Assembly (NCBI GenBank): GCA_902782875.1
Contig: CACZPE010000435.1
Span: 1-5,145, forward strand
Direction of reading: 5' to 3'
Source of the DNA: an uncultured Ruminococcus sp.
Lineage (GTDB): Bacteria > Bacillota_A > Clostridia > Oscillospirales > Ruminococcaceae
Length of the DNA stretch: 5,145 nucleotides
The position numbers were made by a program, and so were the translations under genes. The number at the start of each line of letters is the position of its first letter. Position 1 is the first letter of the stretch. Of this stretch, positions 269 through 4,774 are shown in pieces. The notes under the pieces were generated by a model, which searched no databases, was not told the DNA's origin, and saw nothing but the letters and a program-made list of their open reading frames with translations.

Positions 269-1483
269 ATGCTGTTTTCACTTGCGATCATATTTCTTGC
301 AGGACTATCTGTTGCTGCCATTTCTGACAAGATAGGTCTGCCGCGTATTATCGGTATGCTCTGCGTGGGCATTATTGTCAGTCCCTATGTGCTCGACCTG
401 CTCGACAGCTCTGTTCTCGGCATATCTGCTGAGCTGAGGCAGATAGCACTTATCATAATACTTATAAAAGCAGGTCTCTCACTTGATCTGTCCGATCTGA
501 AAAAAGTCGGCAGGCCTGCAGTGATGATGTCCTTTGTCCCTGCGTGCGCAGAAATAGCGGGATATATCATATTTGCTCCGATGCTTCTTGGTGTAACCCG
601 TACAGAAGCGGCTCTTACAGGAGCAGTACTCAGCGCGGTATCACCTGCAGTAGTAGTGCCGAGAATGGTAAAGCTGATAGAGGACAGATACGGCACAGGG
701 AAAAGCATTCCTCAGATGCTGCTTGCAGGGGCTTCATGCGATGATATTTTTGTAATAGTACTCTTCTCCACCTTTGTCACAATGGCACAGGGAGGCACGG
801 CAAAAATATCCTCACTGTTAAATATACCTGTATCGGCATTGCTCGGCGTTCTGCTCGGCGCACTTACGGGCACGGTGCTTTATATGATCTTCGAGAGTGC
901 ATACACCAGACACAAGCATATACGAAACAGCACAAAGGTGATCATCATACTCGGCTGCTCATTTATGCTTATGTCCGCAGAAACCTTTGCAAAGCCGTAT
1001 ATACCTCTGTCGGGGCTTCTTGCAGTCGTTTCCATGGCGTGTGTGATAAAACTCAGGGCAGACAGGAACGTTTCCTCGCGCCTGTCTCAGAAATTCGGCA
1101 AGCTATGGCTTGCAGCGGAGGTCGTGCTTTTCGTGCTTGTCGGTGCGGCAGTTGATGTGAGATACACCCTTGCCGCGGGGGCTTCGGCTCTGCTGATGAT
1201 CTTTATAGCACTGTCTTTCAGGGCACTGGGTGTGATACTTTGCCTGCTCGGCACAGAGCTCTCCGCAAAGGAGCGGCTGTTCTGCATAATCGCATACCTG
1301 CCCAAAGCCACAGTCCAGGCGGCTATCGGGTCTGTACCGCTCTCACTCGGGCTCCCCTGCGGGAAGATTATACTCTCTGTCGCCGTGCTTGCGATAGTGA
1401 TAACCGCTCCCCTCGGCGCTATAGGCATAGACAGGACATATACGCATTTCCTGCAGCATGAGGAAACAAATCCGTCAGAATGA
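269..1483 (+). CDS. Cation:proton antiporter, SLC9B/NHA-like (CPA superfamily)
   Basis: This 404-residue polytopic membrane protein should exchange Na+ (or K+) for H+ across the cytoplasmic membrane. Hydrophobic helices run over most of its length. Three motifs place it in the CPA superfamily, close to the NHA/SLC9B branch. SAVSPAVVVPRM (122-133) matches the unwound-helix segment. The acidic pair D158-D159 in AGASCDDIFVI is the ion-binding pair. YLPKATVQAAIG (343-354) carries a membrane lysine, K346. Length is usual for the transport core, and there is no C-terminal TrkA/RCK domain, so it is not a full KefB-type protein. The start follows AAGGAGG by 4 bases. The fluoride riboswitch upstream suggests induction by fluoride, where HF entry also acidifies the cytoplasm. 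Direct F- export is not implied by this fold. The exact ion is unknown. Confidence 0.9.
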   Translation: MLFSLAIIFLAGLSVAAISDKIGLPRIIGMLCVGIIVSPYVLDLLDSSVLGISAELRQIALIIILIKAGLSLDLSDLKKVGRPAVMMSFVPACAEIAGYIIFAPMLLGVTRTEAALTGAVLSAVSPAVVVPRMVKLIEDRYGTGKSIPQMLLAGASCDDIFVIVLFSTFVTMAQGGTAKISSLLNIPVSALLGVLLGALTGTVLYMIFESAYTRHKHIRNSTKVIIILGCSFMLMSAETFAKPYIPLSGLLAVVSMACVIKLRADRNVSSRLSQKFGKLWLAAEVVLFVLVGAAVDVRYTLAAGASALLMIFIALSFRALGVILCLLGTELSAKERLFCIIAYLPKATVQAAIGSVPLSLGLPCGKIILSVAVLAIVITAPLGAIGIDRTYTHFLQHEETNPSE

Positions 1484-1509: not shown

Positions 1510-1522
1510 ATATTGACAATAT
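1510..1522. repeat. Short inverted repeat centred on the -35 box
   Basis: ATATTG-A-CAATAT is a perfect 6-1-6 dyad that covers the TTGACA -35 element. A dimeric repressor bound here would block the promoter. The site is short and AT-rich, so chance is a real alternative. Confidence 0.25.
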
Positions 1523-1541
1523 GTAAAAATCATTGTATAAT
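1513..1541 (+). promoter_or_regulatory. Consensus sigma-A promoter of the ExbB/ExbD-like operon
   Basis: There is a perfect TTGACA (1513-1518), a 17-base spacer and a perfect TATAAT (1536-1541). The transcript should begin near 1548, leaving a leader of about 35 bases with AAAGGGG (1568-1574) seven bases before the ATG at 1582. The promoter suggests strong transcription of the five genes that follow, unless it is repressed. Confidence 0.87.
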
Positions 1542-1581
1542 CAAGACAGCATCCTTATAATGAATATAAAGGGGAATTTTT

Positions 1582-2130
1582 ATGGAAAAGATCCTTGAAC
1601 TGATAAGCAAAGGCGGTAAATACTTCATAATCCTGGCAGGATTCGCACTCCTCTTGGCATTGTTCCACAATTTCAGCAAGCTTTCAAATCAGAAAGAGCG
1701 TATAGGAGAAATGCTCAGCAGACGAAATAAGCTGTACTCTAAAAACAAAGAAACACAAGAGCTAGAAGAAGAGGATGATGAAACTTCATCGATCACTCCC
1801 GATACCATCAGGAACTATGAGAACAAATTCAATGAGCTTTGCTCGTGGCATAATGCCTTTTCACAGCTGATATCGGTATTTCCTCTGCTTGGTGTACTCG
1901 GTACTGTTGCAGGTCTGATGCTCAACGCTAGTGCCGAATCCTCCGCTGATATGCTTTCTTCTCTGAACGTTGCCCTTGAGACTACATTCTGGGGACTTAT
2001 CTCAGCTATTATACTCAAGGTATTTGACACACTCTGTCCTTCTAGGACAATAACCGATGTTGAAGTCATGCTAGATGATTTCGACAAGAAAATGGATCTT
2101 GCCGATATGGAAATGACCAGAAAAAAGTAA
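1582..2130 (+). CDS. MotA/TolQ/ExbB-type proton channel protein
   Basis: This 182-residue protein has the three-helix plan of TolQ/ExbB: helix 1 at about 13-30, a charged cytoplasmic loop (31-90, very acidic around 58-68), helix 2 at about 95-114, helix 3 at about 128-147, and a charged C-terminal tail. The family signature is clear: FPLLGVLGTVAGLM (100-113), then ALETTFWGLISAII (131-144), with T108 and T134/T135 in the channel-lining positions typical of the family. Proteins of this type form a ring around an ExbD/TolR pair and conduct protons to drive movement or force across the envelope. It is a little shorter than usual, mainly in the cytoplasmic loop. The ExbD-like gene starts 13 bases downstream. 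No TonB, Tol or flagellar gene is in view, so the driven process is unknown. Confidence 0.85.
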   Translation: MEKILELISKGGKYFIILAGFALLLALFHNFSKLSNQKERIGEMLSRRNKLYSKNKETQELEEEDDETSSITPDTIRNYENKFNELCSWHNAFSQLISVFPLLGVLGTVAGLMLNASAESSADMLSSLNVALETTFWGLISAIILKVFDTLCPSRTITDVEVMLDDFDKKMDLADMEMTRKK

Positions 2131-2142
2131 CAGGAGAATATT

Positions 2143-2685
2143 ATGAGAAAAAACAGACATACCGGAAACGGTGCTGTGATAGACCTCACATCTCTGCTTG
2201 ATGTTATATTTATAATACTTCTCGCTGTTATGGTAAGCAGTAATGTTGATAATACTTCAAAGTCAGACGAACTTGAACAGAACATGAAAGAAGTAAAACA
2301 TCAGCAGGATGAGCTGAATAATAAGATTTCACAGTATGATAATATAATGCAGGTAAAGGATAATATCGATCAATGGGTTTGGATAGTAAGTATATCCGTG
2401 CCCTATGAGGATGATGTCCACAAAAGAACAATATCGGTAATGTCAGAGGATCAGCAGATATACTCTTACGAACTCATAGGAAACAAAACTGAGGAGACCT
2501 TTGACAGATTCAAAGCCGATCTTGTATCACAGATAGAGGGTAAAGACTGTCCCGTGATACTCGCTCTCAATCCCGACAGAGCAGAAATACTTTACAGAGA
2601 CGAACAGAAAGTGACGGATATACTCTTTGAGCTGTCCGAAGAATATCAGAACGTATCAATAAAAGGAAATCTGGGTGATACATAA
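2143..2685 (+). CDS. ExbD/TolR-type proton channel partner
   Basis: This 180-residue protein has a short basic N-terminus and one membrane helix (about 14-33). The helix carries the family motif IDLTSLLDVIFIILLAVM (13-30). D20 is the single membrane aspartate that in ExbD/TolR takes up the proton. A heptad-like polar stretch (about 38-70) could be a coiled-coil stalk. The outer domain (about 77-176) ends in PVILALNPDRAEILYRDE and a helix, resembling the beta-alpha pattern of the ExbD/TolR periplasmic domain. It follows the ExbB-like gene by 12 bases, with AGGAG six bases before the ATG. Together the two should make a proton-driven stator unit. The outer domain is long for ExbD and diverged, so partner binding cannot be predicted. 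Confidence 0.82.
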   Translation: MRKNRHTGNGAVIDLTSLLDVIFIILLAVMVSSNVDNTSKSDELEQNMKEVKHQQDELNNKISQYDNIMQVKDNIDQWVWIVSISVPYEDDVHKRTISVMSEDQQIYSYELIGNKTEETFDRFKADLVSQIEGKDCPVILALNPDRAEILYRDEQKVTDILFELSEEYQNVSIKGNLGDT

Positions 2686-2687
2686 CC

Positions 2688-3308
2688 ATGATCGCTGTAC
2701 TTATGATAATTGCAGGCGCTCTGATGACTGTGTTCGGTTTCATATTCCTGTTATTTGTCATCGTCTCGCCTGTATTTGCAAAAGCACGCTCCATTAGCGG
2801 CAGGGGTGATCCTACAGAGAAGCTGATAAAGGTAATCTCCTCTGTCTACGGAAAAGGTAGCCTCGCAGAGAACGTACTTAAGAAGGAAAATCATCAGAAC
2901 AGGAAGGACCTTCTTCGTCTGTCAGCCGGAATACTACTGTTCGGACTGCTTCTTTTCGGTGCGGGATATTATCTCGGATATGCCGACAGAGGCAACGGAC
3001 ACTGGTTCTACAAGCTGGTATACCATCAGTCAGACCCTGTACCGGAATGGGACAAGATTACCACAGACGGCAGGTATACCGCAGATAACGGCAAGGAGTA
3101 CTCCTTCTACCTGCTGGTAAAAGGCAGTGAATACGAATTCTGCGGAGAGAAGTGCGCGGATATAAACGAAGTCAGGGAGAAGCTTATGAGTATCAGGAGA
3201 GAAAATACCGTGATGCTCCTTGACAGTTACGCTGTATCGTCTTATTATCACGAAGCCGAAGACCTGCTCAAAGAGCTGGCAATAGAGTATGAAACGGAAG
3301 AAGTATGA
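2688..3308 (+). CDS. Two-helix membrane protein with an ExbD-like C-terminal domain
   Basis: I do not recognise this 206-residue protein as a named family. It has a hydrophobic helix at 2-27, a basic, polar loop (28-76), a second helix at about 77-98, and an outer C-terminal domain. The positive loop suggests both termini lie outside. Residues 136-205 follow the pattern of the ExbD/TolR outer domain: a strand (YSFYLLVKG), a short helix with an acidic pattern (INEVREKLMSIR), a strand ending in Asp (TVMLLDS), then YHEAEDLLKELAIEYE. There is no membrane aspartate equivalent to D20 of the preceding protein, so it should not carry protons itself. A CGEKC pair (C152, C156) lies in the outer domain. 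It starts two bases after the upstream stop with no strong ribosome site, suggesting translational coupling. ExbD resemblance is judged by eye. Confidence 0.72.
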   Translation: MIAVLMIIAGALMTVFGFIFLLFVIVSPVFAKARSISGRGDPTEKLIKVISSVYGKGSLAENVLKKENHQNRKDLLRLSAGILLFGLLLFGAGYYLGYADRGNGHWFYKLVYHQSDPVPEWDKITTDGRYTADNGKEYSFYLLVKGSEYEFCGEKCADINEVREKLMSIRRENTVMLLDSYAVSSYYHEAEDLLKELAIEYETEEV

Positions 3309-3769
3309 TGAAAAAGAATACTTGTATATCCATTATATGTATCTTTACCGCGGTTTTGCTTTTGGGCGCATGGGGCGAAAATGTTGAGCTGTTAGATGAC
3401 AAAAAAAAGCTCATTGATCTTGACAACGCGATAGAATTTGCCCGCCCCGGCGGAGGCAGCGCAACTCAACAGGAGGGTGACACCGAAGGTAATCCTCCCG
3501 AAGAAGCTGCAGGCGGTGATACAAATATTCCCGTCACAAATGTCATAGAGATAACTATACAGGGCCGTACCGTTTACTATAACGGCAAAGAGCTCGGCAG
3601 CGACAGTTTTGTAAATAAGCTGATCGACGATAACGCAAAAGGGCGCACATTCGTGCTTGTGGATGACTATGCGGATGCATCGGTATATAAAAATGTAAGA
3701 AAGACCATGCGTGAACAAAAGGAAAAAAACGGTCTTGAATTTGCCGAAAAGATGTCGGAGGAGGAATGA
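3305..3769 (+). CDS. Exported or membrane-anchored protein with an ExbD/TolR-like outer domain
   Basis: This 154-residue protein has a basic N-terminus and one hydrophobic segment (about 8-22), then an acidic, Gly/Pro-rich linker (about 48-76). The C-terminal domain (about 79-147) fits the ExbD/TolR outer-domain pattern well: IEITIQGRTVYYNGKEL, then FVNKLIDD, then FVLVDDYADASVYKNVRKTM. It lacks the membrane aspartate of true ExbD. The hydrophobic segment ends LLLGAW, like a lipoprotein box with Trp in place of the lipid-bearing Cys, so it may stay as an uncleaved anchor. The start overlaps the upstream stop by 4 bases. A second in-frame ATG at 3308 is 7 bases from GGAAG (3296-3300) and may be the true start. 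It is probably part of the same complex. Confidence 0.75.
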   Translation: MMKKNTCISIICIFTAVLLLGAWGENVELLDDKKKLIDLDNAIEFARPGGGSATQQEGDTEGNPPEEAAGGDTNIPVTNVIEITIQGRTVYYNGKELGSDSFVNKLIDDNAKGRTFVLVDDYADASVYKNVRKTMREQKEKNGLEFAEKMSEEE

Positions 3770-4734
3770 TGATGCGCAGATACAGCAGATATCTTTCTGT
3801 ACTGCTGATACTTGTCATCAGCTCAGGGCTGTGCGGATTTGCCTGGCCGACAACACTGGATATCGCCGCAGACACCGATAAACACCATGTATACCAGTAT
3901 ATCACAGTCGATGAACTGATAAGATCATATGAGATCGATGCGCAGATAACGAGAGATTCCCTGAACGGTAAGTATCTGCTCGTGTCGGGCATCTATGAAA
4001 ACACCGACGGAACATCATTCAACATTACAACAAGCGATTACAAGTCTCTCAAATGTGTCATAAAGGACGGGGTATACCTGGATCTGTCCCGATACAAGTT
4101 CAGAGAGGATGTCATCGCTGTCTACGGCAGGTTCTCGTTCACACTTTCAGGCGAGATGCAGCTTGGCGATGCCGAAAAGATAATACCTCGCCCTGTAGCA
4201 ACAGAGAGCATGTACTTTACCCTTGACGGCACATCATTCGACACGGCAACAGCCGTTGAACGTACACTTTCCGAAGGCAGGATAAAATACTGTATACCCT
4301 CCGGATGGGAGAAAATCGAATACAATATCAAGGAAAACGATCTTGGCATCATAGACGGATATCAGTACACGCTCAACAAGCTAAGCCCCGGTGATGATGT
4401 GCCCGAATCTCTGTTTGTCTGCTATTTTGACAAAAATCTTCTGGCAAATTCCGCCTATATCACAAAGGAGGACAAGGTAGAAAAGGCCATTATAAACAAC
4501 ATCACAGGCAGTCCCGGGAACCCGTACAAGCCTTTGTTCCCGAATTACTACGGTGCAAAATACACTTATTATCTGAGCAAGTACACCGATGCGTTCGATC
4601 AGAAAGGCTATCATGCCGAGTATATCTTTCTCCCCGACGCAGACAGGGGCATGGTGATGTATCTGTATATATACAGAGAGCCGAAGCATCTCTCCGATGT
4701 GCTGATGATAATGAGATTTCTCACGATAACTTGA
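3766..4734 (+). CDS. Secreted protein with OB-fold (tRNA_anti-like) domain and a PSGW domain
   Basis: This 322-residue protein has a signal peptide (RRYSRYL, then a hydrophobic core at about 10-24), with likely cleavage near 27-35. The Cys at 23 is not in a good lipobox. Residues 46-140 resemble the tRNA_anti-like OB-fold family (ITVDELIRSYEIDAQ, KYLLVSGIYEN, CVIKD, DVIAVYGRFS, GEMQLGDAEKI), which occurs in exported proteins of Firmicutes. Residues 172-322 form a second domain starting IKYCIPSGWEKIEY, like the 'IPxGW' opening of PsbP/DUF1795-type extracellular domains; this is weaker. Three in-frame ATGs (3766, 3769, 3772) follow GGAGGAGG (3757-3764). The ATG at 3772 has the better spacing. 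As the last gene before the terminator, it may be the surface output or sensor of the ExbB/ExbD-like unit. Its function is unknown. Confidence 0.8.
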   Translation: MMMRRYSRYLSVLLILVISSGLCGFAWPTTLDIAADTDKHHVYQYITVDELIRSYEIDAQITRDSLNGKYLLVSGIYENTDGTSFNITTSDYKSLKCVIKDGVYLDLSRYKFREDVIAVYGRFSFTLSGEMQLGDAEKIIPRPVATESMYFTLDGTSFDTATAVERTLSEGRIKYCIPSGWEKIEYNIKENDLGIIDGYQYTLNKLSPGDDVPESLFVCYFDKNLLANSAYITKEDKVEKAIINNITGSPGNPYKPLFPNYYGAKYTYYLSKYTDAFDQKGYHAEYIFLPDADRGMVMYLYIYREPKHLSDVLMIMRFLTIT

Positions 4735-4741
4735 TTTATAC

Positions 4742-4774
4742 AAGCCTGACGGCATACAGCCGTCAGGCTTTTTT
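4742..4774 (+). terminator. Intrinsic terminator of the ExbB/ExbD-like operon
   Basis: This is a perfect 12-bp stem, AAGCCTGACGGC (4742-4753) and GCCGTCAGGCTT (4759-4770), with loop ATACA and a T-tract ending at 4774. It starts seven bases after the last stop codon, so it closes the five-gene unit. There is no matching T-tract on the - strand. Confidence 0.95.

What the first reader, a model, noticed from the sequence alone, without database searches (positions are those of the whole stretch)
1582..4734. Proton-channel operon with three ExbD-like outer domains in an apparent monoderm
A TolQ/ExbB-type protein and an ExbD with its membrane aspartate (D20) are followed by two more proteins whose C-terminal domains show the same outer-domain pattern but lack the aspartate, then a secreted two-domain protein. 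Known ExbB/ExbD and TolQ/TolR units use one ExbD-type protein and act on TonB or Tol-Pal in an outer membrane. A Gram-positive-looking host has no obvious target. The layout suggests one proton-conducting rotor partner plus two non-conducting variants that could form mixed outer assemblies, a surface motor of unknown use. Seen: gene order, motifs, overlaps. Inferred: homology of the second and third outer domains, and the complex.
Basis: partly seen in the sequence, partly recalled or inferred. Interest (0 to 1): 0.78.

Follow-up and report, generated by a model that had tools for sequence, protein, structure and literature searches.

The report
Monoderm proton motor with ExbD-like partners
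A gut or rumen bacterium of the Gram-positive Clostridia carries a conserved five-gene operon for what looks like a TolQR/ExbBD-type proton-driven motor with two extra ExbD-like outer proteins and one more exported protein, although its relatives show no sign of the outer membrane that such motors are known to act on.

Summary
The operon is real: a 12/12 promoter match at 1513-1541, a strong terminator at 4742-4770, five tightly packed genes A (ExbB/TolQ type), B (ExbD type with D20), C, D, E. An A-profile scan found 58 relatives, nearly all Lachnospiraceae or Oscillospiraceae. All five genes stand in this order in the window and in 50 of 58 relatives; the other 8 run off their contigs. In 250 genomes of one family the 16 with strong A matches are the 16 with strong C matches, A and C close together (thresholds set after seeing the lists).

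C and D outer domains are homologous (P 5e-20); profile comparison links both to the ExbD/TolR outer domain (C 79%, D 81%, merged 90%; 0 of 200 shuffles), though three other searches did not name ExbD. Counting the window, B keeps D20 in 56 of 56, A two channel threonines in 58 of 58, and C has no membrane acid in 53 of 53. Of 12 host genomes none matches Omp85 or TonB_C; 11 have sortase. No structure could be predicted; fold and complex are inferred.

Best reading: a monoderm 5:2-type proton motor whose output passes through ExbD-like accessory proteins to wall or surface. New variant of a known kind; output unknown.

The parts
1513..1541 (+). sigma-70 type promoter-like site TTGACA-N17-TATAAT, 12 of 12 matches, 40 bases before gene A
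   Evidence: consensus match only
1568..1574 (+). ribosome-binding-site-like AAAGGGG before gene A
   Evidence: read
1582..2130 (+). gene A: ExbB/TolQ-type channel protein, 182 aa, three hydrophobic segments; T108 (1903-1905) and T135 (1984-1986) align with E. coli ExbB Thr148 and Thr181
   Evidence: PF01618 E 1.4e-10; T108 and T135 in 58 of 58 distinct sequences; alignment to E. coli ExbB/TolQ
2143..2685 (+). gene B: ExbD-type protein, 180 aa, one hydrophobic segment with D20 (codon 2200-2202); divergent outer domain, residues 76-180
   Evidence: PF02472 E 8.8e-4 below cut-off; 22 of 23 family members match it at E up to 0.1; hhalign full length vs canonical ExbD P 1.3e-8, 96%; D20 56 of 56
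2688..3308 (+). gene C: 206 aa, two hydrophobic segments without acidic residues, then an outer domain (residues 130-206, 3075-3305)
   Evidence: hhalign vs D P 5e-20, vs canonical ExbD outer domain P 1.7e-5, 79%; 64% with inserts removed
3305..3769 (+). gene D: 154 aa, N-terminal signal or anchor segment, conserved LIDL motif after it, variable linker, outer domain (residues 75-154, 3527-3766)
3766..4734 (+). gene E: 322 aa, predicted exported; N-terminal OB-fold-like domain (about residues 38-148) and an unassigned C-terminal part (about 149-322)
   Evidence: 27 of 45 family members match PF12869 tRNA_anti-like and 15 of 45 PF01336 OB fold at E up to 0.1; the window's own copy does not (E 0.14)
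4742..4770 (+). intrinsic terminator-like site, 12-pair stem with T tail

Best explanation
This is a proton-driven membrane motor of the TolQR/ExbBD (5:2) kind that works in a single-membrane bacterium. Shown by sequence: A and B carry the channel signature (B D20, A T108 and T135); C and D are sister outer proteins with hydrophobic anchors, whose outer domain resembles that of ExbD/TolR but which lack the proton-carrying aspartate; E has an export-type N-terminus; all five are kept together under selection. Inferred: A forms the pentamer and B the two-helix axle; proton flow past D20 turns or shifts B; B's outer domain pairs with those of C and/or D, much as ExbD pairs with the TonB D-box strand, and these replace TonB/TolA as the transmission. 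C/D, possibly through peptidoglycan binding as reported for TolR and ExbD, and E then do work on the cell wall or cell surface. An AIM24-family protein may be a cytosolic partner in part of the family.
For: Family hits and channel residues. Profile comparisons C-D, C-ExbD and D-ExbD with controls. ExbD is the family most D proteins match in Pfam, though only 2 of 24 do (best E 0.0019). Simpler relatives ExbB-ExbD-one outer protein; in one of the five tested, ExbD is the only Pfam match (E 0.0068, below cut-off). Five-gene order in the window and 50 of 58 loci, the 8 others ending at contig ends. The same 16 of 250 genomes hold strong A and strong C matches. 0 of 12 host genomes with Omp85 or TonB_C, 11 of 12 with sortase. 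Printed dN/dS 0.026-0.26 for all five genes.
Against: No structure or complex could be modelled. B's outer domain shows no significant similarity to C or D and only marginal similarity to ExbD on its own (score 18.3 against a best shuffle of 18.0). A PDB profile search and Pfam scans of the cut-out C/D domain did not name ExbD (25 of 49 families shown), nor did Pfam scans of 55 C proteins (25 of 67 shown). In one search, 4 of 5 third proteins and 3 of 3 D proteins had no ExbD match. A lacks the TM3 glutamate of E. coli ExbB/TolQ in 58 of 58. Nothing shows proton flow, rotation or a target.
Confidence: 0.6

Rival explanations
1. A-B is a gated proton leak or sensor (pH or energy homeostasis) and C, D and E are outer plugs or regulators; no mechanical output.
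For: C and D could cap B; the window's upstream gene is a cation:proton antiporter (PF00999 E 7.8e-40).
Against: The antiporter has no match among the ORFs of any of the 58 loci, so it is not a conserved partner. Two anchored outer proteins plus an exported protein seem more than a plug needs (judgement).
Confidence: 0.15
2. A Ton or Tol remnant without function, as suggested for Ton systems in monoderm Clostridia (PMC12204202, passages read).
For: ExbB/ExbD homology; no TonB_C in 12 host genomes.
Against: Printed dN/dS 0.026-0.26 for all five genes; order intact in all 51 rows with room; channel residues invariant.
Confidence: 0.05
3. A defence system of the Zorya kind, in which a ZorAB motor drives effectors.
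For: Weak PADLOC matches of A to ZorA (E 9e-4) and of B to ZorB (E 1.5e-3).
Against: These cover the generic channel part; C and D have only weak matches to other models (DrmC E 0.019, PDC-S05 E 0.002) and E none, so no ZorC, ZorD or ZorE. Defence islands were not tested for.
Confidence: 0.05
4. C and D are not ExbD-like; they carry an unrelated small outer domain that only looks similar, and the operon is a channel pair plus unrelated envelope proteins.
For: Searches do not name ExbD; probability is 64-90%, not near 100%; B-out does not match C/D-out.
Against: Alignment over 60-65 residues, 0 of 200 shuffles, natural controls negative; hmmsearch hits placed mainly on the outer domain; ExbD as only Pfam hit of one three-gene relative.
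Confidence: 0.15

Closest known systems
TolQ-TolR of the Tol-Pal system
   Same: ExbB-type channel with three hydrophobic segments, partner with one membrane segment and a conserved Asp, outer domain after a linker; shortened TolR reported to bind peptidoglycan (PMC7391070, passages)
   Different: No TolA, TolB or Pal in the operon; 12 relatives lack Omp85; two further ExbD-like outer proteins and E instead
ExbB-ExbD of the Ton system
   Same: Same channel threonines (E. coli ExbB Thr148, Thr181, and PMC12215075, one passage); B is ExbD-type
   Different: No TonB_C in 12 host genomes; A lacks the TM3 glutamate; accessory outer proteins carry an ExbD-like domain themselves
MotAB flagellar stators of Gram-positive bacteria
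   Same: A 5:2 motor that works in a single-membrane cell (PMC9389320, passages)
   Different: A has three hydrophobic segments, not four (four recalled for MotA); the window's B has no OmpA-type match; no flagellar gene in the window
ZorAB of Zorya
   Same: Motor pair used for something other than uptake or swimming (recalled; named in PMC12905483 passages)
   Different: A has 182 aa against ZorA profiles of 505 and 590 positions; no ZorC/D/E match in the operon
Other generic ion transporters (GIT clade of PMC12505986)
   Same: Family-level kin; the paper notes GIT proteins of unknown function (passages)
   Different: The passages read describe no version with extra ExbD-like outer proteins, and the text has no word beginning lachnospir

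Membership tests
MotA/TolQ/ExbB proton channel (PF01618) | Pfam model match above curated cut-off | tested here: met
   A: 41.4 bits against 22.9
MotA/TolQ/ExbB proton channel (PF01618) | two channel threonines near the partner's Asp | tested here: met
   T108 and T135 in 58 of 58 distinct sequences, aligned to E. coli Thr148 and Thr181
MotA/TolQ/ExbB proton channel (PF01618) | TM3 glutamate as in E. coli ExbB/TolQ | tested here: not met
   position 130 is never E in 58 rows; that this belongs to ExbB/TolQ proper and not to the whole superfamily is recalled
ExbD/TolR (PF02472), gene B | membrane helix with conserved Asp | tested here: met
   D20 in 56 of 56
ExbD/TolR (PF02472), gene B | Pfam score above curated cut-off | tested here: not met
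   window copy 19.8 of 25.4 bits; a relative passes at 25.8
ExbD/TolR (PF02472), gene B | ExbD-type outer domain | tested here: inconclusive
   full-length hhalign P 1.3e-8 over both parts, but the outer part alone P 0.0006 and 0.006 with inserts removed
ExbD/TolR outer domain, genes C and D | outer-domain homology by profile | tested here: met
   79% and 81%, merged 90%; with inserts removed 64%, 85% and 89%, 0 of 200 shuffles; not named
ExbD/TolR outer domain, genes C and D | ExbD/TolR three-dimensional fold | not testable with these tools
   structure prediction switched off
ExbD/TolR (full protein), genes C and D | single membrane helix with the proton-carrying Asp | tested here: not met
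   C: two segments, no acid in 53 of 53; D: one segment in 45 of 50, none called in 5, acid in 5 of 50, always at the outer end
Ton system | TonB and an outer membrane | tested here: not met
   0 of 12 genomes with TonB_C or Omp85; controls positive; genomes may be incomplete
Tol-Pal system | TolA, TolB, Pal with TolQR | tested here: not met
   none of the operon's other genes matches these families; genomes not searched for them
Zorya | ZorAB with ZorC/D or ZorE | tested here: not met
   for the operon's five genes only
5:2 rotary motor | pentamer-dimer complex, ion-driven rotation | not testable with these tools
   no structure or experiment

The most novel reading that the evidence does not exclude
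A monoderm-specific class of proton motor in which TonB/TolA is replaced by a relay of non-conducting, membrane-anchored ExbD-like outer domains (one in the simplest versions, two in this family), moving or remodelling the Gram-positive wall or a surface structure through E, with cytosolic AIM24 as a control partner in some lineages.
Probability: 0.4. Interest if true: 0.8.

Novelty: new variant of a known kind. Interest (0 to 1): 0.6.

Why it matters
[quoted passage not shown] A 2025 survey calls the Ton systems occasionally seen in monoderms, Clostridia included, likely non-functional (PMC12204202, passages). Here is a conserved, selected, complete unit in Gram-positive gut and rumen Clostridia; three carriers (AD3010, AC2028, A4) have record titles of named strains, not MAGs. 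It offers a concrete set of parts to test what such a motor does without an outer membrane and how force leaves an ExbD-type axle without TonB or TolA. If the AIM24 link is real, it would also tie that widespread family to a membrane motor; no paper in the library holds both AIM24 and ExbB, and I did not read the AIM24 papers listed.

Tried and rejected
The single-sequence scan of genome contigs found no relative; the A-profile scan did. The A-profile scan of viral contigs found none, so no sign of phage carriage there. The window's own genome is not held. PDB profile searches: B gives weak TolR (E 0.06) and ExbD (E 2) hits among chance hits, D nothing useful, E weak OB folds, the C/D outer domain repeat-inflated ubiquitin hits and no ExbD. 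The antiporter upstream in the window was rejected as a component: no match in the ORFs of the 58 loci. My first tree count for AIM24 (6 changes) used labels that missed L032, L036 and L043; with corrected labels it is 3 changes, 2 forced. The first cross-profile E-values of C and D came from mixed profiles and are not used; rows were reassigned by position, clean alignments made and compared. L108 (G109) has an ExbB-like gene (E 1.5e-7) with no C, D or E match around it; set aside. 15 further genomes with weaker C matches (E 2.8e-5 to 1e-3) were not examined.
Full report
Observation. The window holds five tightly packed genes on the plus strand, 1582-4734, with a perfect sigma-70 type promoter match at 1513-1541 and a strong terminator-like site at 4742-4770. 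A (182 aa) matches the MotA/TolQ/ExbB family (E 1.4e-10). B (180 aa) matches ExbD/TolR at E 8.8e-4, below the curated cut-off. C (206 aa), D (154 aa) and E (322 aa) match no Pfam or NCBIfam family above cut-off.

Relatives. A protein search with A gave 121 proteins at E <= 0.001 (120 listed, the window's own among them), a few of them named as proton channel proteins of Lachnospiraceae or Oscillospiraceae MAGs; a search with C gave 14. A profile of 26 A proteins scanned against one genome for each of 84,980 species gave 58 loci, by record title nearly all Lachnospiraceae, Oscillospiraceae, Ruminococcus or other Clostridia, mostly rumen and gut MAGs; three titles name strains instead (A4, AD3010, AC2028). 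Gene finding with profiles shows A-B-C-D-E in this order in 51 of 59 rows (the window and 50 of 58 loci; E is cut by the contig end in some); the 8 others (L003, L006, L017, L022, L026, L036, L039, L056) run off their contigs. Median gaps are 11, -4, -4 and -4 bases. In close pairs (16, 16, 9, 9 and 6 pairs for A to E; at most 10 printed per gene) the printed dN/dS values are 0.026-0.26. The window's A groups with Oscillospiraceae/Ruminococcus sequences in a starred set of 8 rows.

Channel residues. Counts are of distinct sequences, window included. T108 and T135 of A are invariant in 58 of 58 and align with Thr148 and Thr181 of E. coli ExbB. D20 of B is invariant in 56 of 56. The TM3 glutamate of E. 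coli ExbB/TolQ is replaced in 58 of 58. C has two hydrophobic segments in 53 of 53 with no acid in the core; D has one in 45 of 50 and none called in 5; 5 of 50 D proteins have an acid inside the computed core, each time at its outer end.

Outer domains. Clean profile-profile comparison shows the C and D outer domains to be homologous (P 5e-20, 99%). B's outer domain does not match theirs significantly (P 0.016 and 0.0017). Against a profile of canonical ExbD/TolR proteins cut to the outer domain, C gives P 1.7e-5 (79%) and D P 1.2e-5 (81%), over 61 and 64 aligned columns; full-length comparison lands on the same place. The merged C+D+third-protein profile gives 90%. For the shuffle control the inserts were removed, which gives C 64%, D 85% and merged 89%; none of 200 column-shuffled versions reaches the real score (C 25.9 against at most 18.4; D 30.6 against 17.7; merged 31.4 against 16.1; B 18.3 against 18.0, so B is marginal). 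Natural controls are negative: the two parts of E P 0.17 and 0.34, five neighbour families best P 0.015. An HMM of the canonical proteins finds 15 of 50 D, 3 of 53 C, 55 of 56 B, 1 of 8 third proteins and 1 of 49 E at E <= 0.01 (E-values for 50 sequences); the printed D and C hits lie mainly on the outer domain, the one E hit on the N-terminal hydrophobic segment. Pfam's own ExbD model matches 2 of 24 D proteins at E up to 0.1 (best 0.0019; region not shown). Against this, Pfam scans of 55 C proteins (25 of 67 families shown), a PDB profile search with the cut-out domain and Pfam scans of 48 cut-out domains (25 of 49 families shown) did not name ExbD. I therefore take the ExbD-like outer domain of C and D as likely, not proven.

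Simpler versions. In 250 genomes drawn from one family, 55 match A and 31 match C at E <= 0.001. The 16 with A at E <= 1e-9 are exactly the 16 with C at E <= 4e-7 (sets compared), A and C on the same contig within about 1.4 kb in each by the listed places. These cut-offs were set after seeing the lists; the next A match (G109, 1.5e-7) has no C, and 15 weaker C matches were not examined. Eight of the 16 carry E over nearly its whole length. Of the other eight, five show ExbB-ExbD-one outer protein, two (G178, G176) have an outer-protein gene before A, and one (G194) has A-B-C-D, as far as the contigs reach. The outer protein of L123 has ExbD as its only Pfam match at E <= 0.1 (E 0.0068, 16.9 of 25.4 bits, residues 54-136 to profile 31-113); the four other third proteins and three D proteins in that call have no ExbD match. 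This suggests that one ExbD-like third protein is the base state and that C and D are a duplicated pair; the direction of change was not tested. Matches to E's OB-like part alone occur in genomes without a strong A match, so that domain is not specific.

Host. Twelve genomes that hold the operon were searched: Omp85 0 of 12, TonB_C 0 of 12, sortase 11 of 12, with positive controls. The carriers are therefore taken as monoderm; completeness of these genomes was not told. In 398 genomes of the same phylum, 101 have an ExbD match at E <= 0.001, 99 of them over the cut-off, so ordinary ExbD is common elsewhere in the phylum.

AIM24. In 22 of 58 loci a gene of the AIM24 family (PF01987, checked by Pfam for 4; the rest by a profile of 19 of these proteins) lies upstream, in 21 within -41 to 53 bases of A and in L043 1,267 bases away; G047 has it adjacent and G198 divergent. 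L001-L031, which include the loci nearest the window, have none. On the A tree this label needs 3 changes, 2 forced. AIM24 is present somewhere in 11 of 12 carriers, so mere presence says little; adjacency says more.

Mechanism. Shown: composition, conservation, coupling of genes, channel residues. Inferred from homologs: A5B2 stoichiometry and proton-driven movement. Reviews report that the open ExbD dimer pairs with the TonB D-box through strands and that ExbD and TolR outer constructs can bind peptidoglycan (PMC12905483, PMC7391070; passages read). By analogy I propose that C and D, anchored beside the motor, take the place of TonB/TolA and hand force to the wall or to E. The target is not known.

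Literature. Papers were seen as passages only: PMC9389320, PMC12204202, PMC12505986, PMC12215075 (one passage), PMC7391070, PMC12905483. None of the passages describes this operon, and eight searches (two of them without any hit, three showing only the top rows) listed no title or abstract start that does; this covers only the open-licence library held here.

Verdict. Real, conserved and selected; a new variant of the ExbBD/TolQR kind in single-membrane Clostridia. Function unproven.

Noticed in passing
L033:7104-7997, L049:7204-7995, L057:1604-2401 and 19 further loci: An AIM24-family gene (PF01987) lies directly upstream of gene A in 21 of 58 relatives and 1.3 kb away in one more; possible cytosolic partner.
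   Followed up: partly
L033:13152-14458, L041:11050-12314 and relatives: A 302-aa SPFH/Band 7 type gene (Pfam-checked in L033 and L041) with a small protein gene follows the operon at some distance in five loci of one lineage (L032-L034, L038, L041); may be simple synteny.
   Followed up: partly
window 269-1483: A cation:proton antiporter gene (PF00999) precedes the operon, with its own perfect promoter match at 104-132; no match to it in the ORFs of the 58 related loci.
   Followed up: yes
L122-L129: Three- and four-gene versions of the system with one ExbD-like third protein (two in L128), some with the third gene before ExbB.
   Followed up: partly
L028 and L029 (G117): Two copies of the operon on two contigs of one MAG, identical over 3,361 bases plus 854 before and at least 5,167 after; assembly duplicate or very recent duplication.
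   Followed up: partly
101 of 398 genomes: Ordinary ExbD is common in the sampled phylum; the groups were not told.
   Followed up: no
L108 (G109): ExbB-like gene beside another small protein with a hydrophobic segment, without C, D or E match; probably a different channel system.
   Followed up: no
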